A stretch of DNA of 64,000 bases. Origin: Nonomuraea polychroma. GTDB taxonomy: Bacteria > Actinomycetota > Actinomycetes > Streptosporangiales > Streptosporangiaceae. Positions 32,889-49,328 of this stretch are shown piece after piece. Position 1 is the stretch's first letter. Every line of letters begins with the position of its first letter. The notes beneath the pieces were generated by a model, which saw only the letters and a program-made list of their open reading frames with translations, searched no databases and was not told the origin of the DNA. Made by a program: the position numbers and the translations under genes. The stretch lies in contig NZ_SAUN01000001.1 of the NCBI RefSeq assembly GCF_004011505.1, forward strand, positions 2,976,001 to 3,040,000, read 5' to 3'.

Positions 32889-33899
32889 ATGGACATCAAC
32901 ATCGTGCTCGTAGTCATCGGCTTCTTGCTCTTCCTGCTCGCGGTCTCCGGAGTGAGGGTGGTCAACCAAGTCGAGCGCGGCATCGTGTTCCGCTTCGGCA
33001 GGGCACAGCCGCATATCCGGCAGCCGGGCCTGAGATTCCTCATCCCCGGCGTGGAACACATGAAGAAGGTCAACGTCCAGATCGTCACGATGCCCATTCC
33101 GACGCAGGAGGGCATCACGAGGGACAACGTCTCCGTACGGGTCGACGCGGTGGCCTACTTCAGGGTCCAAGACCCCATGCGAGCCGCCATCGAGGTGCAG
33201 AACTACCTGTTCGCCGTCGAGCAGGTGGCGCAGACCTCGTTGCGGTCCATCATCGGCAAGAGCGAATTGGACGATCTGCTGACTAACCGGGAGGAACTGA
33301 ACAAGGGCCTCGCGCTGATGATCGACAGCCCCGCGCTCGGCTGGGGCATTCACATCGATCGGGTGGAGATCAAGGACGTCCAGCTGCCCGAGGCCATGAA
33401 ACGCTCCATCGCCCGGCAGGCCGAAGCCGAACGGGAGCGACGGTCCAGGGTGATCGTCGCGGACGGCGAGCTGCGGGCCGCGCACAAGCTGGCCGACGCC
33501 TCGGGCATCATGTCGCAGACGCCCGGCGCGCTGCAGCTGCGGCTGCTGCAGACCGTGGTGGAGGTGGCCGCGGAGAAGAACTCCACCTTGATCATGCCGC
33601 TGCCGGTCGAGTTGCTGCGGTTCTTCGACCGGGCGGCGCAGGCCGGCACGCGGGAGCAGACCGCGGAGCCCGCCACGGCCGGCGCCGAACGGATCCAGCC
33701 CGACGGCGAGCAGCAGGTCCAGCCGCAGGGCGAGCAGCCTGCCCTCACGGAGCACCGTCTCGCCGAGGAGGAGCAGCCCGCCGTCACAGGGCTCGGCGCG
33801 GCCCAGGACGAGGCGGCGAGGCCCGCCCCGCTGACCGACGTAGGAGTGCCGGATCCCCGGAAGCCTCACCGCTCCGGCTCGGCGAAGCGCGCCGAGTAG
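32889..33899 (+). CDS. SPFH/band 7 protein (slipin-type)
   Basis: Membrane-anchored protein of 336 residues. One transmembrane helix (residues 4-24) is followed by the band 7 domain (about 25-190: RVVNQVERGIVFRFGR, then PGLRFLIPGVE) and a short coiled coil (ARQAEAERERRSRVI). The C-terminal 100 residues are low-complexity, Gln/Glu/Pro-rich and probably disordered. Slipins form ring-like membrane scaffolds. The usual NfeD partner protease gene is absent. It follows the STAS gene by 36 bases. Confidence 0.9.
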   Translation: MDINIVLVVIGFLLFLLAVSGVRVVNQVERGIVFRFGRAQPHIRQPGLRFLIPGVEHMKKVNVQIVTMPIPTQEGITRDNVSVRVDAVAYFRVQDPMRAAIEVQNYLFAVEQVAQTSLRSIIGKSELDDLLTNREELNKGLALMIDSPALGWGIHIDRVEIKDVQLPEAMKRSIARQAEAERERRSRVIVADGELRAAHKLADASGIMSQTPGALQLRLLQTVVEVAAEKNSTLIMPLPVELLRFFDRAAQAGTREQTAEPATAGAERIQPDGEQQVQPQGEQPALTEHRLAEEEQPAVTGLGAAQDEAARPAPLTDVGVPDPRKPHRSGSAKRAE

Positions 33900-34047
33900 A
33901 CCACGCGCCAGTGTCCGGCGGGATGGCCGTGGGGCCACCACGCCGACGGATATATACGTTTTTTTGACGCCCTGACCTGGTGAAACGGCCTTCCGCCCTG
34001 GATAGGGTGCGATGCGTCCTGCGCCATTTTGATGAAGGGTGACCGTT

Positions 34048-35958
34048 ATGGTGCTGGCAAAACAGCCAGCTGCCACGGAGGGAACGCTGCGTTCCTGGCT
34101 GCTCCAGGGATTGCAGACCGACCGTAAGCAGATCGAGCACGGTCCCCACGTCAAGCACCCATGGTGGCGGGTGATGTGCCTGACCGGTGTGGACTATTTC
34201 TCCACGCTGGGCTACCAGCCGGGGATCGCCGCGCTGGCCGCCGGGCTGCTCTCGCCGCTGGCCACGTTATTCCTGGTGGCGTTGACGCTGCTGGGCGCAC
34301 TCCCGGTCTACCGCCGGGTCGCGGCCGAGAGCCCGTACGGGCAGGGCTCGATCGCGATGCTGGAGAAGCTGGCCCCGCAGTGGTGGGGCAAGTTGTTCGT
34401 GCTGGCCCTGCTCGGGTTCGCGGCCACCGACTTCGTGATCACCATGACGTTGTCGGCGGCGGACGCGACCGCGCACATCCTGGAGAACCCGTTCGTGCCG
34501 GACTTCCTGGCCGGGCAGCGGGTGCTGGTGACGCTGGTGCTCCTGGCGGCGCTCGGCGGGGTGTTCCTGATGGGCTTCACCGAGGCCATCGGCATCGCCG
34601 TGCTGCTGGTGTTCGCCTACCTGGGGCTGAACGCGGTCGTGGTGGCGACCGCGATCGTCCACGTGCTGCAATCCCCGCAGGTCGTGGTGGACTGGCAGCG
34701 GGCGCTGAGCCTGGACTTCAGCAGCCCGCTGGCCATGATCGGGCTGTCGTTGCTGGTGATGCCGAAGCTGGCGCTGGGCATGTCCGGGTTCGAGACCGGA
34801 GTGGCGGTGATGCCGGTGGTCAAGGGCGACATCGCGGAGCGGATCAAGGGCACCCGGCGGCTGCTCACCACCGCGGCGCTGATCATGAGCGTTTTCCTGA
34901 TCTTCTCCAGCTTCGTCACCACCGTGCTCATTCCGCACCAGGAGTTCGAGGAGGGCGGCAAGGCCAACGGGCGGGCGCTGGCCTACCTGGCGCACAGCTA
35001 CCTGGGCGACTGGTTCGGCACCGTCTACGACGTCTCCACGATCGCGATCCTGTGGTTCGCCGGCGCGTCGGCGATGGCCGGGCTGATCAACCTGGTGCCG
35101 CGGTACCTGCCGCGCTACGGCATGGCGCCGGAGTGGACCGGCGCGGTGCGGCCGCTGGTGCTGGTGTTCTCGGCGATCGCGTTCGCCATCACGATCATGT
35201 TCGACGCCGACGTGGACGCCCAGGCCGGCGCGTACGCCACCGGCGTGCTGGTGCTCATGCTCTCGGCCGCGGTGGCCGTCACGCTGTCGGCCCGCAGGAA
35301 ACGCCAGCACAAGGCGGCCGCCGCCTACATGATGATCTCCGCGGTGCTGGCGTACACGCTGGTGGACAACGTGATCGAGCGGCCGGACGGCGTGAAGATC
35401 GCCTCGTTCTTCATCGCGGCCGTCATCGTCACCTCGCTGATCTCCCGCGCCACCCGTTCGACCGAGCTGCGGGTGACCGAGGTGCACCTGGACGCGCTGG
35501 CCGAGGAGTTCGTCAACGACGCGTGCGGCGAGGTGCACGTCATCGCCAACGAGCCGCACGTGCGCGACCAGGTGGAATACACCGACAAGCTGCGCGAGAC
35601 CTGGCTCAACCACCGGCTGCGCAGCTCCGAGCCGGTGTTGTTCGTGGAGGTGTCGGTGCCGGACGCCTCGGAGTTCGAGACCGAGCTGCACGTCAAGGGT
35701 GAGGAACGCTACGGCCACAAGATCCTCACCATCGAGAGCTCGGCCGTGCCCAACACGCTCGCCGCGCTCCTGCTCTACCTGCGTGACCGCACCGGCTCGG
35801 TGCCGCACATCTACTTCCATTGGACCGAGGGCAATCCGGTCGTGGCCATGCTGCGGTACCTGGTCTTCGGAGGCGGCGACGTACCGCCGCTGACCCGGGA
35901 GGTGCTCCGCCAGGCCGAGCCCGATCTGGAACGCCGCCCGCACGTCCACGTCGGCTGA
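34048..35958 (+). CDS. APC family permease with C-terminal cytosolic domain
   Basis: Membrane transporter of 636 residues. About twelve hydrophobic segments fill residues 40-470, then a soluble domain of about 160 residues ends the protein ([15 protein letters not shown], later [12 protein letters not shown]). The layout resembles APC permeases of the KimA kind, but the ion or amino acid carried cannot be told. ATG 34048 is preferred to GTG 34039 because AAGGG at 34035-34039 then has normal spacing. The 150-base leader has an AT-rich run with seven T near 33959; I found no recognisable riboswitch in it. Confidence 0.85.
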
Positions 35959-37149: not shown

Positions 37150-37749
37150 ATGGGCAAGGTCATCGTCATCGAGCACCTGACTGTGGACGGCGTGATGCAG
37201 GCGCCCGGGCACCCCGACGAGGACCCGCGCGACGGCTTCACACACGGTGGCTGGGCGGCCAGGGCCCAGGACCCGGCCATGCAGGAGGCGATGGGCGCGC
37301 GCATGTCGAGCGCGTGGTCACTGCTGGCGGGCCGCACGACGTACGAGCGTTTCGCCGACTACTGGCCCCGGCAGGCGCCGAACCCGTTCACCGAGGCGCT
37401 CGACCGGGTCCGCAAGTACGTCGCGTCCACGACGCTGGCCGAGCCCCTGCCCTGGCAGAACTCCACGCTCCTCAAGGGCGACGCCGCCGACGCCGTGGCG
37501 GTGCTCAAAGAGGAGGTGGCGGAGAACCTGGTGGTGTTCGGCAGCGGGGTGCTGGTCAGGTCGCTGCTGGCGGCCGGCCTGGTCGACGAGCTCCTACTGC
37601 TGATCCACCCGCTGACGCTGGGTTCCGGGCGCCGGCTCTTCCCGGACTCCGGGACGGGCCTGGCCGCGTACGAGCTGGTGGACTCCGCGACGACGCGCAT
37701 CGGCGTGCTCATCGCCGCCTACCGGCCGGCGGAGGGTCACATGAGGTAG
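37150..37749 (+). CDS. Dihydrofolate-reductase-fold protein (RibD C-terminal-like)
   Basis: Soluble protein of 199 residues in the DHFR/RibD_C superfamily: MGKVIVIEHLTVDGVMQAPG at the N-terminus, the nucleotide-binding LLAGRTTYERF, and VVFGSGVLVRSLLAAGLVDE then the LTLGSGRRLFP end. These stand-alone proteins are common in actinomycetes and most have no known substrate. It follows the aldo/keto reductase by 45 bases and its last bases overlap the converging transporter gene by 13. Confidence 0.88.
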   Translation: MGKVIVIEHLTVDGVMQAPGHPDEDPRDGFTHGGWAARAQDPAMQEAMGARMSSAWSLLAGRTTYERFADYWPRQAPNPFTEALDRVRKYVASTTLAEPLPWQNSTLLKGDAADAVAVLKEEVAENLVVFGSGVLVRSLLAAGLVDELLLLIHPLTLGSGRRLFPDSGTGLAAYELVDSATTRIGVLIAAYRPAEGHMR

Positions 37750-39020
37750 CGGAACCACAGGTAGGGCGCGACCAGGGTGACGGTGACCGCCGTGACGATC
37801 AGGCCGTACTTGGTGAACTGCCAGAAGCTGATCGGGGTGCCGTTGCGGGCGGCGATGCCGAGCACCACGACGTTGGCCGCGGCGCCGACCGCGGTGGCGT
37901 TGCCGCCCAGGTCGGCGCCGAAGGCCAGCGCCCACCACAACACGTCGTGGCCGCCGTTCGCCTCGACGAGCCCTTCGACGATGGGGCTCATCGTGGCGAC
38001 GTACGGGATGTTGTCCACGATGGCCGACAACACGGCGGAGGCGCCGAGCAGCCCCATCGTGGCCAGCTCCAGCCGCCCGGCGGTCGCCGCGACCGCGGCC
38101 TCGGACAGCGCCCCTATGACGCCGGTCTCGACCAGGGCGCCGACCATGACGAACAGCCCGGCGAAGAACACCAGCGTCGGCCACTCCACCTCGGCGATGG
38201 CCCGCTCGGTGCGTACCTTCGTCACCGCCACCAGCAGGCCCGCCCCGAGCAGCGCCACCACCGACGGCTCGTAGTGCAGCACCGGGTGCAGCACGAACGC
38301 CGCCATCACCAGCGCCAGCACGGCGAGCGACTGCCACAGCAGGCGCCGGTCGGCGAGGGCCTCCTTCTCGTCCAGCGCCATGATCTCATCAGCCCGCTCG
38401 GGATCGTAGCGGAAGTGGCGGCCGAACATCAGCCAGCACAAGCCGACGAACACCGCCATCAGCACGACGACCAGCGGCGCCATGTGGATGAGGAAGTCGT
38501 TGAAGGTCAGCCCGGCGCGGCTGGCGATGATGATGTTCGGCGGGTCGCCGACCAGGGTGGCCGCGCCGCCGATGTTGGACGCCATCGCCTCGGCGATCAG
38601 GAACGGCACCGGGTTGATGGCCAGCCGCTCGCACACCAGGAACGTCACCGGCGCGATCAGCAGCACGGTCGTCACGTTGTCCAGCAGCGCCGACGCCCCG
38701 GCGGTGATGAGCACCAGCAGCACCATCAGCCGGAAAGGCCGCCCTCTGGCGCGCTTGGCGGCCCAGATCGCCAGGTACTCGAAGACGCCGGTCTCCTTGA
38801 GCACCCCGACGATGACCATCATGCCGAGCAGCAGGAAGATGACGTTCCAGTCGACGCCGGAATGCTCGGAGAAGAACGCCGCCTCCGCGCCGGTGGCGTG
38901 GATCAGCAGCATGATCCCCGCACCGCCCAGGGCGGCCGCGACCCGGTGGATCTTCTCGGTGGCGATCAGCGTGTACGCGGCCAGGAACACCGCCACGCTC
39001 ACCCAGGACAGGGCGCTCAC
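37737..39020 (-). CDS. ArsB/NhaD-superfamily ion transporter (SLC13-like)
   Basis: Membrane protein of 427 residues with about eleven hydrophobic segments and the family repeats NIGGAATLVGDPPNIIIASR and AFGADLGGNATAVGAAANVV. This places it with NhaD Na+/H+ antiporters, ArsB and SLC13 carriers. The GTG at 39020 has no ribosome site of its own; it overlaps the stop of a 14-codon upstream ORF, so translation is probably coupled. The shared leader element with the divergent NhaP-type gene supports an alkali-cation/proton antiporter rather than an arsenite pump; no ars genes are near. Confidence 0.85.
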   Translation of the reverse strand: MSALSWVSVAVFLAAYTLIATEKIHRVAAALGGAGIMLLIHATGAEAAFFSEHSGVDWNVIFLLLGMMVIVGVLKETGVFEYLAIWAAKRARGRPFRLMVLLVLITAGASALLDNVTTVLLIAPVTFLVCERLAINPVPFLIAEAMASNIGGAATLVGDPPNIIIASRAGLTFNDFLIHMAPLVVVLMAVFVGLCWLMFGRHFRYDPERADEIMALDEKEALADRRLLWQSLAVLALVMAAFVLHPVLHYEPSVVALLGAGLLVAVTKVRTERAIAEVEWPTLVFFAGLFVMVGALVETGVIGALSEAAVAATAGRLELATMGLLGASAVLSAIVDNIPYVATMSPIVEGLVEANGGHDVLWWALAFGADLGGNATAVGAAANVVVLGIAARNGTPISFWQFTKYGLIVTAVTVTLVAPYLWFRYLM

Positions 39021-39061
39021 AGCGTGATCATCATCGGGAAGCCGTCGATCAGGATGTGCAC
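39017..39061 (-). CDS. 14-residue upstream leader peptide
   Basis: GTG 39061 opens MHILIDGFPMMITL, ending in a TGA that overlaps the transporter's GTG by four bases. AAAGGA lies seven bases upstream, a proper ribosome site, while the transporter start has none. The peptide is mostly hydrophobic and lacks runs of one amino acid that would suggest attenuation. Its role is probably to carry ribosomes onto the transporter frame under control of the leader RNA. Confidence 0.65.
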   Translation of the reverse strand: MHILIDGFPMMITL

Positions 39062-39124
39062 AAAAATGTCCTTTCCGGTCAAACGGGACAAAGAATCGCC
39101 GACCAGACTTCCCGGCACACCTGT
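39059..39124 (-). ncRNA. Candidate cis-regulatory leader RNA of the ArsB/NhaD-type gene
   Basis: The predicted 5' leader begins just after an extended -10 (TGATACGTT) and contains GCCGGGAAGTCTGGTCGGC (39116-39098 on this strand). Its TCTGGTC can pair with GACCGGA directly before the AAAGGA ribosome site, and its CGGGA can pair with a downstream TCCCG. The same 19-mer is in the divergent antiporter leader. This looks like a switchable translational control element. Confidence 0.6.
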
Positions 39125-39189
39125 CACCAACGTATCAAGGTCCGTCAATGAAGCGTCAATACGCCGGCGGCGCGGCTGCTGTTAGGGTG

Positions 39190-39251
39190 GGCGCGGTGCG
39201 CCGGGAAGTCTGGTCGGCAAGGTCCGCGCGATTTCCCGACTGGAGGCGTAC
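39190..39251 (+). ncRNA. Candidate cis-regulatory leader RNA of the NhaP-type gene
   Basis: Behind an extended -10 (TGTTAGGGT, from 39179) the leader carries the same GCCGGGAAGTCTGGTCGGC (39200-39218), preceded like the other by GGTGyG. TCTGGTC can pair, with two G-U pairs, to GACTGGA, which overlaps the GGAGG ribosome site; CGGGAA can pair with TTCCCG just upstream of it. The position of the pairing is kept while the pairing bases differ between the two leaders (GACCGGA versus GACTGGA). Confidence 0.6.
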
Positions 39252-40469
39252 ATGGGCACGTTACTGACGGCGTTCGCCGGCGTGCTGCTGCTGGCCGTGC
39301 TGCTGTCGAGCCTGGCCCACCGCACCATCCTGTCCACGGCCGCGCTGTTCCTGGTGGCCGGCTTCGTGCTGGGCGACGGCGTGCTGGGCGTGGTGTCGCT
39401 GCGGCCTGGCGACGCGCTGGTGTCGACGCTGGCCGAGCTGGCGCTGTTCACCGTGCTGTTCACCGACGGCATGCGGGTGGGCTGGGCCGAGCTGCGCAGC
39501 GCCTGGCGGCTGCCGGGGAGGGCGCTGGGCTGGGGGCTGCCGCTCACCCTGGGCATCACCGCCGTCGGCGCGCACTACCTGCTCGGCCTGGGCTGGATCG
39601 AGTCGCTGCTGATCGGCGCGATCCTGGCGCCCACCGACCCGGTCTTCGCCGCCGCCCTGGTCGGCAACGAGAAGGTGCCGCCCCGGCTGCGGCAGCTGCT
39701 CAACGTCGAGTCGGGCGTCAACGACGGGCTCGCGCTGCCGTTCGTGATCCTCTTCCTGGCCATCGCCTCCGGGTCGGACGACCTGCACCTCGGCGACCTG
39801 GGGCTGGAGCTCGGCCTCGGCATCCTCATCGGGGTCGCCATCCCGTGGGCGGCGATCAAGCTGGAGCAGACCCGCTGGTTCTCCGCCTCCACCCCGTACG
39901 AGCCGCTCAACGCCCTGGCCATCGGCCTGCTCGTGCTCGCGGTCGGCAAGGCCACGCACGGCAACCTGTTCCTGGCCGCGTTCTCGGCGGGGATCACCGT
40001 GGCCACCTTCGGACCGCGGCAGCGCGAGTCGTTCGAGCACTTCGGCGAGCTCATCGCCGAGGTGTTCAAGCTGGCCGCGCTGCTGGTGTTCGGCGCGCTC
40101 ATCACCCCGGCGTTGCTCGGCTCGGTCGGCTGGCAGGGCTGGCTGTTCGCGGTGCTCGCCCTGGTGCTGGCCCGCCCGATCGCCATCTGGCTGTCCTTCC
40201 TGCGCTCGGGGCTGTCCGTGCGCGAGCAGGCGGCGGTGGCGTGGTTCGGGCCCAAGGGCTTCGCCTCGGTGGTGTACGGGCTGCTGGTGCTCGCTTCCGG
40301 GATCGCGACGGCAGAGCAGGTGTTCCAGATCGTCGCGGTGACCATCGTGCTGTCGATCCTGCTGCACTCCTCCACCGACATCGTGGTGGCCCGCGGCTTC
40401 GACGACGAACGCGAGATCCCCGTCTGGTACGGCGTCGCCCGGCGGCTGCGGGAGCGCGGAAAGCCGTGA
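39252..40469 (+). CDS. Cation/proton antiporter, NhaP/CPA1 type
   Basis: Membrane antiporter of 405 residues with about twelve hydrophobic segments. Signature motifs of CPA1 exchangers are LIGAILAPTDPVFAAAL near residue 120 and NVESGVNDGLALPFVIL near 155, the latter with the Asn-Asp ion-binding pair. It lacks the long C-terminal tail of some relatives. It would exchange Na+ or K+ for protons at the plasma membrane. The ATG has GGAGG eight bases upstream, inside the putative RNA switch. Confidence 0.92.
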   Translation: MGTLLTAFAGVLLLAVLLSSLAHRTILSTAALFLVAGFVLGDGVLGVVSLRPGDALVSTLAELALFTVLFTDGMRVGWAELRSAWRLPGRALGWGLPLTLGITAVGAHYLLGLGWIESLLIGAILAPTDPVFAAALVGNEKVPPRLRQLLNVESGVNDGLALPFVILFLAIASGSDDLHLGDLGLELGLGILIGVAIPWAAIKLEQTRWFSASTPYEPLNALAIGLLVLAVGKATHGNLFLAAFSAGITVATFGPRQRESFEHFGELIAEVFKLAALLVFGALITPALLGSVGWQGWLFAVLALVLARPIAIWLSFLRSGLSVREQAAVAWFGPKGFASVVYGLLVLASGIATAEQVFQIVAVTIVLSILLHSSTDIVVARGFDDEREIPVWYGVARRLRERGKP

Positions 40470-44922: not shown

Positions 44923-46536
<1,614 letters not shown>

Positions 46537-46562
46537 CTGCGTACTCCGTTCTCCCCCGTACG

Positions 46563-49328
46563 TTATGACTGGTCGATCACCTGGTGGAGGAGTTCGATCG
46601 GGTGGCGCGCAGCGCGGCCCGCGCCGTGGGCGATCTGCTGGCGGCACGACAGCCCCGTGGCCGCGAGCAGTGTGTCGGGTGAGGACGCGGCGATCGCCGG
46701 GAAGAGCCGGAGGCCGCCGATCCTCATGGACAGGTCGTAGTGCTCGCTCTCGAAGCCGAACGAGCCGGCCATGCCACAGCAGCCGGCGTCGATCTCTTCC
46801 ACCTCCGCTCCGGGGATTCTGGACAGCAGTGCTCGTGTGGCGTCGGTGCCGACGACGGCTTTCTCGTGGCAGTGGCCGTGCAGGAGGATCTTCCGCCCGC
46901 GCAGCCCGTCGCCGAGCACCAGCGAGCCGTCGTCGATCGCCTCGACGAGCAGGTCGGGGACGAGCCTGGCGCGGGCCGCGACCGCCGCCACCCGCGGGTC
47001 GCCGGGCAGCAGCGCGCGGTACTCGTCCTTCAGCGTCAGCAGGCAGGACGGCTCCAGGCCGACGATGGGCGCGTCCGAGCCGGACAGCCCGTCGACCATC
47101 GCCTCGGCCATCGACCTGGCCCGGTCGAGCAGGCCCTTGGAGATGCTGGAGCGGCCGCAGCAGCCGTCGGCCGCCAGGCGTACCCGATAGCCGGCGCGCT
47201 CCAGCAGCGCGACGGCGGCCTGCCCGATGCCGGGCTCGGTGTAGGTGGTGAAGGAGTCCGCGAGCAGGATCACCTCCTTCGTCCCGGAAGGGGACGGCCG
47301 GCGCGCGTGCCAGCGGACAAGGGTGTCGCGCCGGAAGCGGGGGAGCGGTCGCCGCCGGCTCAGCCCGAGCGGGCCGCGCAGGGGACGTGCCAGCCAGTTC
47401 GACAGCGGGGCGGTGGCCGAGCCCAGGCGGTTGAGCGTCCTGATCGCCCCGAACAGCCGGGCCCGCAGGGGCACACCGTGCTGCTGCTGGTGCTGGTGCA
47501 GGAACTCGCTCTTCAGCGCCGCCATGTCCACGCCCAGCGGGCATTCCGACTGGCAGGCCTTGCACTCCAGGCACAGGTCGAGGATCCCGTGCAGCCGGTC
47601 GTCTCCCATCGCCTGCCGGGGATCGTCCGACGACAGGGCCTTGACCAGGGCGTTGGCCCGGCCGCGGGTGGAGTGCTCCTCCTCGCGGGTGGCCATGTAC
47701 GACGGGCACATCACGCCCGTGTCGTCCTTGCGGCACACACCGACGTTCATGCACCGGTCGGCGGCGGCGTGCATGCCGCCGGCGAACGACAACGTGGTGG
47801 GCAGCGGGCGTGGCTCCGGCATGGCCGGGTCGCGCAGGTGGTCGGTCATCGGCGGCGCGTCCACGATCTTGCCGGGGTTCAGCAGTCCACGCGGGTCGAA
47901 GACCTGCTTGATCCGCCGCATGGCCTCGTAGATCTCGTCGCCGAACAACCGCCGGTTGAACTCCGAGCGGGCCAGCCCGTCGCCGTGCTCGCTGGAGTTC
48001 ACGCCGCCGTGCCGGGCGGCGAGCTCGGCGATCTCCTCGGCGACCGCGCGCATCCTGCCGATCTCGCCGGGCGCGCGCAGGTCCACGAACGGGCGGATGT
48101 GCAGGCAGCCGACCGAGCAGTGGCCGTAGAACCCGGCCTGCAGGCCGTGGCCGTCGAGGATGCGGGCGAACTCCTCGACGTAGGGCAGCAGCCGCTCCGG
48201 CGGGACGGCCGTGTCCTCGACGAACGCCAGCGGCCTGCGGCTGCCCACGCTGGAGGCCATCAGCAGGCCGAGCCCCGCCTTGCGCACCTTGAGCACGGCC
48301 GCCTGATCGCGTTCGGCCGTGGCCCTGAGCGTGTGATAGCCGTGGCCGTTCGCCTTCCACGTCGCGGCCAGCTTGTCCACCCGGTCGGCCACCTCGGCCG
48401 GGGTGTCGCCGAAGAACTCGACGAACAGCAGCGCCTCCGGGTCTCCCTCGAGGATGCCGCCGAGCCCCGCGTAGTCCACGCGCTGCCTGGACAGGTCGAG
48501 GATGGCCTTGTCGATGAGCTCGACGGAGGCGGCGTCGAAGGCCAGGGCGTCGGCGGTGGCGGCGATCGCGGCCGGCGTGGAGGTGAAGTGGCCGACGGCG
48601 ATGGCCTTGGCCCGCGGCCGGTCCACCAGCGCCACCGTGGCCTCGGTGACCACGGCCAGCGTGCCCTCCGACCCGACGATCAGCTTGGTGAGATCCCCGT
48701 CCACGGCCAGGTCCAGCCGGTAGCCGCCCGAGTGCCGCCAGAAACGCGGGAACCCGGTCAGATCCAGCCCCTGCACGACCTCGGCCACCGCCGCCTTGAG
48801 CCGGGCGTCGGCCGCCAGGTCGGGCATGGTGGCGTCGGCGAGCACCACGCTCACCGACGCGACGTGGTCGATCGTGGAGCCGTACCGGACGGAGTGGCTG
48901 CCGGCCGAGTTGTTGCCGATCATTCCGCCGATCGTGGCCCGGTTGCTGGTCGAGGTGTCCGGCCCGAACATCAGCCCGTGCCTGCGGGCCGCACGGTTGA
49001 GCTGGTCCTGCACGACCCCCGGTTGCACCCGGGCGGTCCTGCCGTCGATCTGCAGGATCTTGTTCATGTGCCGGGAGAAGTCGACGATCACCGCCGCGCC
49101 CACCGTCTGCCCGGCCAGGCTGGTGCCCGCACCGCGCGGCAGCACCGGCACCTCCAGCTCGCCGCACGCCGCCACCAGCGCCTGCACGTCGCCGGCGTCC
49201 TTGGGAAAGGCGACGGCGAGCGGCTCGATGGCGTACATGCTGGCGTCGGAGGAGTAGAGGTGCCGGGTGTAGGGATCGTCCCTGACGTCGCCGCCGATCA
49301 GCGGCGACAACTTCCGGGCCAGGCTCAT
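46563..49328 (-). CDS. FAD-linked oxidase/Fe-S oxidoreductase fusion (glycolate or D-2-hydroxyacid dehydrogenase type)
   Basis: Membrane-associated dehydrogenase of 921 residues that fuses GlcD-like and GlcF-like parts. Residues 1-470 form the FAD-binding domain (VLPRGAGTSLAGQTVG, later PDTSTSNRATIGGMIGNNSA). The Fe-S part has a partial 4Fe-4S cluster, CLECKACQSECP near 590, plus an earlier CMNVGVCRK. CCG-type domains follow (DGCCGRSSISKGL, DAGCCGMAGSFG). It overlaps the aminotransferase stop by ATGA. With an aminotransferase for glyoxylate upstream and a carboxylate permease downstream, glycolate is the most coherent substrate; D-lactate is the main alternative. Confidence 0.92.
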   Translation of the reverse strand: MSLARKLSPLIGGDVRDDPYTRHLYSSDASMYAIEPLAVAFPKDAGDVQALVAACGELEVPVLPRGAGTSLAGQTVGAAVIVDFSRHMNKILQIDGRTARVQPGVVQDQLNRAARRHGLMFGPDTSTSNRATIGGMIGNNSAGSHSVRYGSTIDHVASVSVVLADATMPDLAADARLKAAVAEVVQGLDLTGFPRFWRHSGGYRLDLAVDGDLTKLIVGSEGTLAVVTEATVALVDRPRAKAIAVGHFTSTPAAIAATADALAFDAASVELIDKAILDLSRQRVDYAGLGGILEGDPEALLFVEFFGDTPAEVADRVDKLAATWKANGHGYHTLRATAERDQAAVLKVRKAGLGLLMASSVGSRRPLAFVEDTAVPPERLLPYVEEFARILDGHGLQAGFYGHCSVGCLHIRPFVDLRAPGEIGRMRAVAEEIAELAARHGGVNSSEHGDGLARSEFNRRLFGDEIYEAMRRIKQVFDPRGLLNPGKIVDAPPMTDHLRDPAMPEPRPLPTTLSFAGGMHAAADRCMNVGVCRKDDTGVMCPSYMATREEEHSTRGRANALVKALSSDDPRQAMGDDRLHGILDLCLECKACQSECPLGVDMAALKSEFLHQHQQQHGVPLRARLFGAIRTLNRLGSATAPLSNWLARPLRGPLGLSRRRPLPRFRRDTLVRWHARRPSPSGTKEVILLADSFTTYTEPGIGQAAVALLERAGYRVRLAADGCCGRSSISKGLLDRARSMAEAMVDGLSGSDAPIVGLEPSCLLTLKDEYRALLPGDPRVAAVAARARLVPDLLVEAIDDGSLVLGDGLRGRKILLHGHCHEKAVVGTDATRALLSRIPGAEVEEIDAGCCGMAGSFGFESEHYDLSMRIGGLRLFPAIAASSPDTLLAATGLSCRQQIAHGAGRAARHPIELLHQVIDQS

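What the first reader, a model, noticed from the sequence alone, without database searches (positions are those of the whole stretch)
39059..39251. Identical 19-nt element in both leaders of two divergent ion transporter genes
GCCGGGAAGTCTGGTCGGC occurs once on each strand (39098-39116 minus, 39200-39218 plus), forming a perfect 19-bp inverted repeat. Each copy sits just after an extended -10 and before a ribosome site, in equivalent positions, also sharing a preceding GGTGyG. In each leader TCTGGTC can pair with GACCGGA or GACTGGA at the ribosome site, and CGGGA with a downstream TCCCG. The two pairings would cross, so they are mutually exclusive or a pseudoknot. An RNA switch sensing an alkali cation or pH fits. 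Known RNAs of this niche are nhaA-I/nhaA-II (Li+) and DUF1646 (Na+); I cannot confirm the consensus from memory.
Basis: partly seen in the sequence, partly recalled or inferred. Interest (0 to 1): 0.82.

Follow-up and report, generated by a model that had tools for sequence, protein, structure and literature searches.

The report
New actinobacterial ion-gene RNA switch candidate
A 25-letter RNA element at the probable start of messages for sodium and potassium transport genes recurs almost unchanged across many Actinomycetota and some Chloroflexota, and its anatomy points to an unrecognised RNA switch that turns these genes on, perhaps in response to sodium.

Summary
The 19-mer has two copies in the window and a third exact copy 1.5 kb beyond it, before a TrkH gene. 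Its core occurs in 224 of 394 sampled class genomes. The full element is about 25 nt, GGWGNGCCGGGAAGNCUGGUCGGCR. It follows a TANNNT box by 7 nt in 118 of 229 leaders, so it is probably the 5' end of the mRNA.

It acts as RNA: the GCC/GGC stem keeps pairing through two-sided changes (8 cells, 0 of 500 shuffles), and positions 5/25 exchange U.G for C.A. Of 159 downstream genes, 117 fall in ion-transport clusters, 92 of them NhaA.

In Chloroflexota-type genomes 11 of 17 leaders pair the element into an intrinsic terminator (1.5 expected). Folding of the element would therefore switch genes on.

No Rfam family matches; the listed hits of nine literature searches show no description. Best reading: a new riboswitch class, ligand probably Na+ (K+, Li+ or pH possible). 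Ligand binding is untested. The platform in Actinomycetota, including this window, is only weakly supported.

The parts
39096..39121 (-). Conserved 25-nt element (plus one flanking base) of the leader of the CitMHS/NhaD-like transporter gene; nt 1 = 39121
   Evidence: Covariance model R1: 45.3 bits, E 6.7e-08
39195..39220 (+). Conserved 25-nt element (plus one flanking base) of the leader of the CPA1 antiporter gene; nt 1 = 39195
   Evidence: Covariance model R1: 45.4 bits, E 6.4e-08
39129..39134 (-). -10-like TACGTT, 7 nt before nt 1
   Evidence: Sequence; TANNNT ends 7 nt before nt 1 in 118 of 229 leaders
39183..39188 (+). -10-like TAGGGT, 6 nt before nt 1
   Evidence: Sequence; gap of 6 nt in 14 of 229 leaders
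39074..39080 (-). GACCGGA, possible anti-element strand for UCUGGUC (nt 15-21), next to and sharing one A with the SD-like AAAGGA (39074-39069)
   Evidence: Sequence; GACC paired with GGUC (nt 18-21) in the predicted MFE and centroid; GACYRGA in 13 of 143 leaders, 2.6 expected
39238..39244 (+). GACTGGA, possible anti-element strand for UCUGGUC, overlaps SD GGAGG (39242-39246)
   Evidence: Sequence. The predicted MFE does not use it: it pairs nt 2-8 with GGCGUAC just before the ATG and nt 9-16 with GAUUUCCC
39017..39061 (-). Short upstream ORF GTG...TGA (14 codons, VHILIDGFPMMITL) whose stop overlaps the GTG of the transporter gene
   Evidence: Sequence; not tested for expression
37737..39020 (-). 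CitMHS/ArsB/NhaD-like transporter gene under the - element
   Evidence: PF03600 E 2.5e-95; below the curated cut-off of the NhaD and ArsB models
39252..40469 (+). CPA1-type monovalent cation/proton antiporter gene under the + element
   Evidence: PF00999 E 9.8e-43

Best explanation
The element is the aptamer of a cis-acting RNA switch of about 25 nt that starts at the 5' end of the mRNA. Nt 6-8 pair with 22-24 under a U.G or C.A wobble (5/25), and the near-invariant 13-nt loop GGGAAGNCUGGUC with the 5' GGWG would form the binding site. When the element folds (ligand bound), its strands cannot pair with downstream partners. In Chloroflexota-type leaders that partner completes an intrinsic terminator, so folding means read-through. 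In Actinomycetota, and in this window, a partner often lies at or beside the Shine-Dalgarno sequence, so folding would free the ribosome site. Shown by sequence: conservation, stem covariation, 5/25 covariation, spacing to the -10-like box, gene association, terminator-like helices that exclude the stem. Inferred: transcription start, ON direction, translational control here. Guessed from the genes: ligand Na+ (about 0.5), otherwise K+, Li+ or pH.
For: Exact core in 224 of 394 class genomes, control in 2. With stem positions 7, 8, 22, 23 left free, 112 places in 296 phylum genomes: 104 canonical, 6 with changed but fully Watson-Crick stems, 2 others that appear to lie in coding frames. P1 on 37 distinct sequences (variants included on purpose): 111 of 111 cells paired and 8 cells changed on both sides, each 0 of 500 shuffles; pairs with a double change 2, 10 of 500; pair types not above shuffles (353 of 500); slid versions lower. 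Nt 5 and 25: U.G 102, C.A 59, A.A 21, U-A 13, C-G only 2 of 229; mutual information 0.48 bit against at most 0.153 for the other pairs tested. TANNNT ends 7 nt before nt 1 in 118 of 229. 117 of 159 downstream genes fall in ion-transport clusters; 92 of 92 in the main cluster match PF06965 and 16 of 17 in the second PF00999; further targets, chosen by eye for testing: Proton_antipo_M 4 of 4, P-type cation ATPase, H_PPase, TrkH, Na_Ca_ex, TrkA_N. Terminator-like helix using an element strand in 11 of 17 Chloroflexota-type leaders, 1.5 expected from letter shuffles; genes of 10 of the 17 were tested and all 10 are antiporters or CitMHS.
Against: No ligand, binding or expression data. In Actinomycetota the pairing of the SD region with the element is only slightly better than shuffled (mean z -0.35 against -0.14 for scrambled elements; 59 of 143 leaders have none of the four partner motifs). 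A thermodynamic model predicts the SD to be less, not more, accessible with the element folded (0.39 against 0.48, 118 leaders), which speaks against a simple ON by SD release. Terminator leaders L301-L306 are closely alike, so the 11 are not independent; 6 of 17 have none. The alternative folds are much more stable than the stem alone (L302 -25.9 against -7.7 kcal/mol), so the element would need tertiary contacts or a binder. Part of the targets (PEP-synthase/Rph-like, alpha/beta hydrolases, LCM methyltransferase, STAS, SpoIIE, Usp) have no evident tie to cations, nor has the gene after terminator leader L292, PP2C-like by sequence. The own genome's single NhaA gene lacks the element.
Confidence: 0.72

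Rival explanations
1. The same RNA switch, but the ligand is not Na+: it senses K+, Li+ or proton concentration (alkaline pH), or a signal such as a nucleotide. (Nested in the best explanation, not exclusive with it.)
For: Targets include K+ uptake (TrkH, TrkA_N) and antiporters that resemble K+/H+ models as well as Na+ exporters. The C.A variant of pair 5/25 would need a protonated A (own knowledge). Four GG runs could allow a two-layer G-quadruplex (own idea, not tested).
Against: U.G is used more than C.A at 5/25 (102 against 59), so protonation cannot be the general sensor. NhaA, Mrp-like, P-type ATPase and H_PPase targets fit Na+ best, though these protein families are not all Na+-specific.
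Confidence: 0.35
2. The element is a hairpin bound by a protein or pairs with a trans-acting small RNA, instead of binding a small ligand.
For: A 3-bp stem with a 13-nt near-invariant loop is as compatible with a protein site as with an aptamer; it is short for a riboswitch aptamer (own knowledge).
Against: Leaders of another phylum keep it unchanged with the same gene classes; the downstream platforms differ between phyla, as is usual for riboswitches (own knowledge). No protein or small-RNA candidate was sought.
Confidence: 0.2
3. A DNA operator bound by a regulator as an inverted repeat.
For: The two window copies form a perfect 19-bp inverted repeat.
Against: The related N. gerenzanensis locus has only one copy; the element lies after the -10-like box and points towards the gene; two-sided stem changes and the terminator complementarity make sense in RNA.
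Confidence: 0.03
4. A constitutive 5'-end hairpin for mRNA stability or start-site efficiency, not a switch.
For: It starts at the inferred +1 and the platform in Actinomycetota is statistically weak.
Against: Near-invariant loop, 5/25 covariation, gene specificity and terminators that exclude it are unexpected for a mere stabiliser.
Confidence: 0.07

Closest known systems
Na+-I riboswitch (DUF1646 motif, Rfam RF03071 'Sodium')
   Same: Leaders of Na+ and other cation transport genes; a terminator stem that forms only at the expense of aptamer stem P2 (PMC9337991, passages seen).
   Different: That motif has two stems, P1 and P2; its model has 55 positions. Here one 3-bp stem and a 13-nt loop in 25 nt. 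No covariance match. A passage seen names Firmicutes, Proteobacteria, Acidobacteria and Verrucomicrobia as holders.
Li+-I and Li+-II riboswitches (nhaA-I, nhaA-II motifs)
   Same: Leaders of nhaA genes, activation on cation binding (PMC9646797, start of abstract and passages seen).
   Different: No Rfam match in the window. 'Actinobacteri' does not occur in that paper's main text. The consensus drawings were not seen.
ydaO (c-di-AMP) riboswitch
   Same: Controls K+ transport genes (recalled).
   Different: No Rfam match; ydaO is far larger (recalled).
nqrA-II motif and dauA motif (50-genome survey)
   Same: Orphan candidates; nqrA-II was suggested for Na+ or another cation-related ligand, dauA is from Streptomyces (PMC11109978, two passages seen).
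   Different: dauA is a three-stem junction that includes the SD; neither passage describes the element found here. The consensus drawings were not seen.

Membership tests
Na+-I riboswitch (RF03071) | Covariance-model match | tested here: not met
   No match at E <= 10 for 38950-39350; none in the own genome
Na+-I riboswitch (RF03071) | Two extended stems P1 and P2 with conserved nucleotides at the base of P1 and in the P2 loop | tested here: not met
   Only one 3-bp stem covaries within a 25-nt conserved unit
Na+-I riboswitch (RF03071) | Selective Na+ binding | not testable with these tools
   No biochemical assay
Li+-I / Li+-II riboswitch (nhaA-I, nhaA-II) | Covariance-model match | tested here: not met
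   cmscan of all Rfam families: none in the window at gathering score, none at E <= 10 around the element but three chance hits to other families; six other loci gave one tRNA only
Riboswitch (general kind) | Located in the 5' leader, transcribed | tested here: inconclusive
   -10-like box 7 nt upstream in 118 of 229 leaders; no mapped transcription start
Riboswitch (general kind) | Conserved fold with compensatory changes | tested here: met
   7-23 and 8-22 each with two-sided changes; 8 such cells, 0 of 500 shuffles
Riboswitch (general kind) | Expression platform exclusive with the aptamer | tested here: met
   Terminator-like helix in 11 of 17 Chloroflexota-type leaders, 1.5 expected; only weak support in Actinomycetota
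Riboswitch (general kind) | Direct ligand binding without protein | not testable with these tools
   Needs in-line probing or similar
DNA operator (inverted repeat) | Palindrome needed as a unit | tested here: not met
   Single copies in other loci

The most novel reading that the evidence does not exclude
A previously undescribed riboswitch class for a monovalent cation (most likely Na+), with an aptamer of only about 25 nt that begins at the first transcribed nucleotide, present in over half of the sampled class genomes, with members in Streptomyces, Amycolatopsis, Arthrobacter and mycobacteria, and in some Chloroflexota. It commands a Na+/K+ regulon through termination in one phylum and through translation in the other, and uses a wobble pair (U.G or C.A) at its base.
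Probability: 0.55. Interest if true: 0.92.

Novelty: new variant of a known kind. Interest (0 to 1): 0.86.

Why it matters
How actinobacteria sense Na+ or alkaline pH to control NhaA, Mrp and Trk systems has no general answer known to me. One common RNA element in front of members of all these families makes the question directly testable in laboratory Streptomyces. If it binds Na+, K+ or H+ on its own, it would be among the smallest natural aptamers and a strong model for monovalent-ion recognition by RNA. It would also be a regulon marker that points to uncharacterised genes with a probable role in ion homeostasis (DUF2254, CBS-CitMHS operons, permease-like proteins without a Pfam match).

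Tried and rejected
Known-family readings were rejected: no Rfam match at gathering score in the window, only three chance hits at E <= 10 around the element, and one tRNA in six other loci. RF03071 was searched in the own genome.

A competing hairpin CCGG/CUGG (nt 7-10 with 16-19) pairs in 98% of cells but has no two-sided change, against 8 cells for P1. With pair 5/25 counted as an ordinary pair the whole structure did not exceed shuffles in paired cells (127 of 500), since C.A and A.A are not standard pairs. Long-range pairing was tested by k-mers: among 5-mers the complements of GGUCG (53 against 26.2 expected) and GUCGG (39 against 21.2) stood out; some 6-mer and 7-mer complements of CGGGAA, CGGGAAG and UCUGGU were also raised on small counts; the complement of GCCGG was depleted (6 against 15.4).

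Variant search by up to 3 mismatches over 100 phylum genomes gave many exact hits, many with 3 mismatches (as in the controls) and only a few with 1-2. Phage contigs: 2 hits, neither with the GGNGNG start. The plasmid collection gave 43 records at E <= 1, chiefly actinobacterial. Fold z-scores were unremarkable: window leaders -1.19 and -0.11; a stretch of the third leader that begins only at nt 15 gave +1.85. The terminator scan of the other, mainly actinobacterial, loci gave 9 of 155 against 3.65 expected, which I did not pursue.

Non-pairing or unclear stem variants: G407 and G565 appear to lie in coding frames; L208 (U7, U22, G23) has no TANNNT box; L280 (G7-C23) pairs but has no clear gene; three non-canonical Chloroflexota-type hits (L296, L308, L311) do not pair and lack a leader-like setting. 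For the 5/25 count 234 hits were taken and 5 dropped (L111, L198, L208, L215, L217). A2 holds 37 of 94 distinct 26-mers, chosen by hand to include all stem variants, so its double changes are enriched by choice; the figure without choice is 6 of 112 places.

My count of ion-transport genes leaves out 5 permease-like genes without a Pfam hit (L116 tested) and 7 CBS genes, although a CitMHS-like frame follows directly in 5 of these 7.

Full report
WHAT IS THERE. The 19-mer GCCGGGAAGTCTGGTCGGC lies at 39098-39116 (-) and 39200-39218 (+) between two divergent transporter genes. The - gene (37737-39020) matches CitMHS, PF03600; the + gene (39252-40469) matches Na_H_Exchanger, PF00999. The genome (11.5 Mb, one contig) holds exactly one more copy, 1.5 kb beyond the window, in the leader of a gene whose product matches TrkH, PF02386. 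No copy has one or two mismatches; 12 have three, and the reversed control gives 9 at up to three.

HOW COMMON. The 15-nt core is found exactly in 224 of 394 genomes drawn from the class; the reversed control hits 2 genomes, 3 places. The Rhizobium, Elusimicrobia and Eremiobacterota rows lack the GGNGNG start and the Mesorhizobium row (L111) has it without a TANNNT box at the usual place; I take all four as chance.

THE UNIT. Aligned on the core, 163 hits show that the flank GGTGNG, which the pattern did not fix, is conserved too: G at -8 and -7 in 160 each, G at -5 in 161, G at -3 in 160. I number the first G as nt 1: GG(U/A)GN GCC GGGAAGNCUGGUC GGC R. Upstream, TANNNT ends 7 nt before nt 1 in 118 of 229 leaders, 8 nt in 26 and 6 nt in 14; each other distance has 7 or fewer. 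The base before nt 1 is C 89, A 64, T 56, G 20. G1 is the likely transcription start (inference). The start codon follows at a median of 62 nt after nt 1 (quartiles 57-78; 125 leaders with a confident gene call).

IT IS RNA. I freed stem positions 7, 8, 22 and 23 in the pattern and searched 296 phylum genomes: 112 places in 81 genomes, one control hit. 104 have CC/GG. Of the other 8, six are fully Watson-Crick (UC/GA four times, CU/AG once, GC/GC once). The remaining two (G407, G565) appear to lie in coding frames (my reading of the frames). A search of 394 class genomes for non-C at position 7 gave 21 places, of which five look like leaders with a TANNNT box and start codon; all five have A at 23 (L199, L201, L203, L210, L212). 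A further U7 hit without the box, L208, does not pair; the rest did not look like leaders. Together eight leaders with a gene carry two-sided changes: six before nhaA by their N-terminal sequence (L199, L201, L212, L281, L282, L288), one before DUF2254 (L203), one before a Proton_antipo_M gene (L210). On 37 distinct sequences chosen to include the stem variants, the stem 6-8/22-24 pairs in 111 of 111 cells with 8 cells changed on both sides; 0 of 500 shuffles reach either value or the covariation score, 10 of 500 reach the number of pairs with a double change (2), and pair types are not above shuffles (353 of 500); sliding the partner lowers it. G6-C24 never varies. The rival hairpin 7-10/16-19 shows no double change. 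Just below the stem, nt 5 and 25 vary together: U.G 102, C.A 59, A.A 21, U-A 13, U-C 10, A-G 8, U-U 5, A-C 4, C-C 4, C-G 2, C-U 1 (229 leaders; mutual information 0.48 bit, next highest 0.153 for the neighbours 25/26). U.G and C.A are isosteric wobble pairs (established knowledge), and C-G is rare. These statistics are not corrected for the tree.

WHAT IT CONTROLS. 159 downstream genes were called from 163 hits. BLAST clusters give NhaA 92, CPA1 17, CitMHS/NhaD-like 3, TrkH 2 and single CitMHS_2, Na_Ca_ex and TrkA_N genes, together 117; CBS proteins 7 (a CitMHS-like frame follows directly in 5); permease-like proteins without Pfam hit 5 (one tested); and 30 others: ABC ATPases 3, PEP-synthase/Rph-like 3, alpha/beta hydrolases 3, DUF2254 2, and 19 single genes, some of them chance hits in coding DNA. 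Pfam confirms PF06965 in 92 of 92 and PF00999 in 16 of 17. Later loci, chosen by eye for testing, add Mrp-type Proton_antipo_M (4 of 4), P-type cation ATPase, H_PPase, two NfeD proteins and a further TrkH, and also CBS, STAS, hydrolase and DUF2254 genes. Some genomes carry islands of elements: G354 has four within about 5 kb, G057 two groups of three. The set reads as sodium extrusion plus potassium uptake; I infer Na+ as the likeliest signal, with K+, Li+ and pH as alternatives. Targets without a tie to ions remain unexplained.

HOW IT WORKS. In 201 genomes from the phylum of G666 (the genome of a Ktedonobacteraceae MAG contig, L149), 13 have a hit, 12 with the canonical stem; of 18 places 15 are canonical and 3 do not pair. 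Adding two leaders from other Chloroflexi-labelled MAGs (L290, L291), 17 leaders were scanned: in 11 an element strand pairs over 9-11 bp (G-U allowed) with sequence downstream that runs into a U-rich tract, against 1.5 expected from letter-shuffled downstream DNA. Ten use nt 1-11 or part of it (for example GGAGUGCCGGG with CCCGGCACUCC, then UCUUUUCUUU); L300 uses nt 10-20. Where nt 5 is U the partner has A, where it is C the partner has G (L293, L310). By anatomy these are intrinsic terminators and they exclude the stem 6-8/22-24, so folding of the element would prevent termination: ON with ligand. Of the 17, the genes of 10 were tested and all match PF00999, PF06965 or CitMHS; L298 and L303-L306 were not tested but resemble tested ones; the genes after L290 and L292 look like a permease and a PP2C-like protein. 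L301-L306 are closely alike, so the events are fewer than 11. The same design is published for a Na+-I riboswitch, where the terminator forms at the expense of P2 (PMC9337991, passage).

In Actinomycetota the picture is weaker. CGACC, the complement of GGUCG (nt 18-22), occurs 66 times in 53 of 125 leaders, 34 of the 66 beginning 16-21 nt before the start codon, many of them within 4 nt of the SD. YCGACC occurs in 45 of 143 leaders (12.5 expected) and GACYRGA in 13 (2.6 expected), but 59 have none of four partner motifs and the overall duplex energy is only slightly better than shuffled. A folding model even predicts less SD access with the element folded (0.39 against 0.48; 118 leaders). In the window the + leader's predicted fold pairs nt 2-8 with GGCGUAC just before the ATG and nt 9-16 with GAUUUCCC; the - leader pairs GGUC with GACC beside the SD and nt 4-7 with GCAC of the GUGCAC start region. 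Both exclude the element's own stem and would hide the start region. Fold z-scores are unremarkable (-1.19 and -0.11). I therefore hold translational ON-switching in the window as likely but not shown.

NOVELTY. Nine searches of the held papers showed no description of the element in the hits listed; some listings were cut (for example 12 of 194 papers, 15 of 135). The sequence strings occur in 3 papers, all on mammalian subjects by title. Of PMC9646797, PMC9337991, PMC8632094, PMC2864571 and PMC11109978 I saw found passages only. Supplements and preprints were not searched, and most subscription papers are not held, so prior description cannot be excluded. Rfam 15 has no match.

VERDICT. A conserved RNA element with strong signs of being a new cation-related riboswitch class; ligand and mechanism in this window remain to be tested.

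Noticed in passing
39017-39061 (-): A 14-codon ORF with its own SD-like AAAGGA precedes the CitMHS/NhaD-like gene and overlaps its GTG start; in relatives (L078, L273) this slot holds a CBS-domain gene of 147 aa overlapping the transporter gene.
   Followed up: partly
32889-35958 (+): A Band_7/SPFH protein (PF01145) next to a 639-aa membrane-like protein with no Pfam hit and no PDB relative by sequence; NfeD proteins, usual partners of SPFH proteins (recalled), stand under the element in L194 and L195.
   Followed up: partly
L312 (own genome, C1:6686503-6687711): The only NhaA gene of the window's genome lacks the element, although NhaA is its commonest target elsewhere.
   Followed up: partly
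L285, L287: U17 of the loop is G in two leaders (before an ABC-ATPase-like and an Mrp-like gene by sequence), found among the one-mismatch hits.
   Followed up: no
L213, L215, L216, L217: A shared stretch containing CGGGAAGTCTGGTCGAC followed by GGTACAGT-type repeats in four genomes of one genus of the same family; L215 and L217 precede TetR-like genes by sequence; probably an unrelated site.
   Followed up: no
45500-45700: Low-complexity stretch coding for EPEP and GVGV repeats inside the long - strand frame 44923-49167.
   Followed up: no
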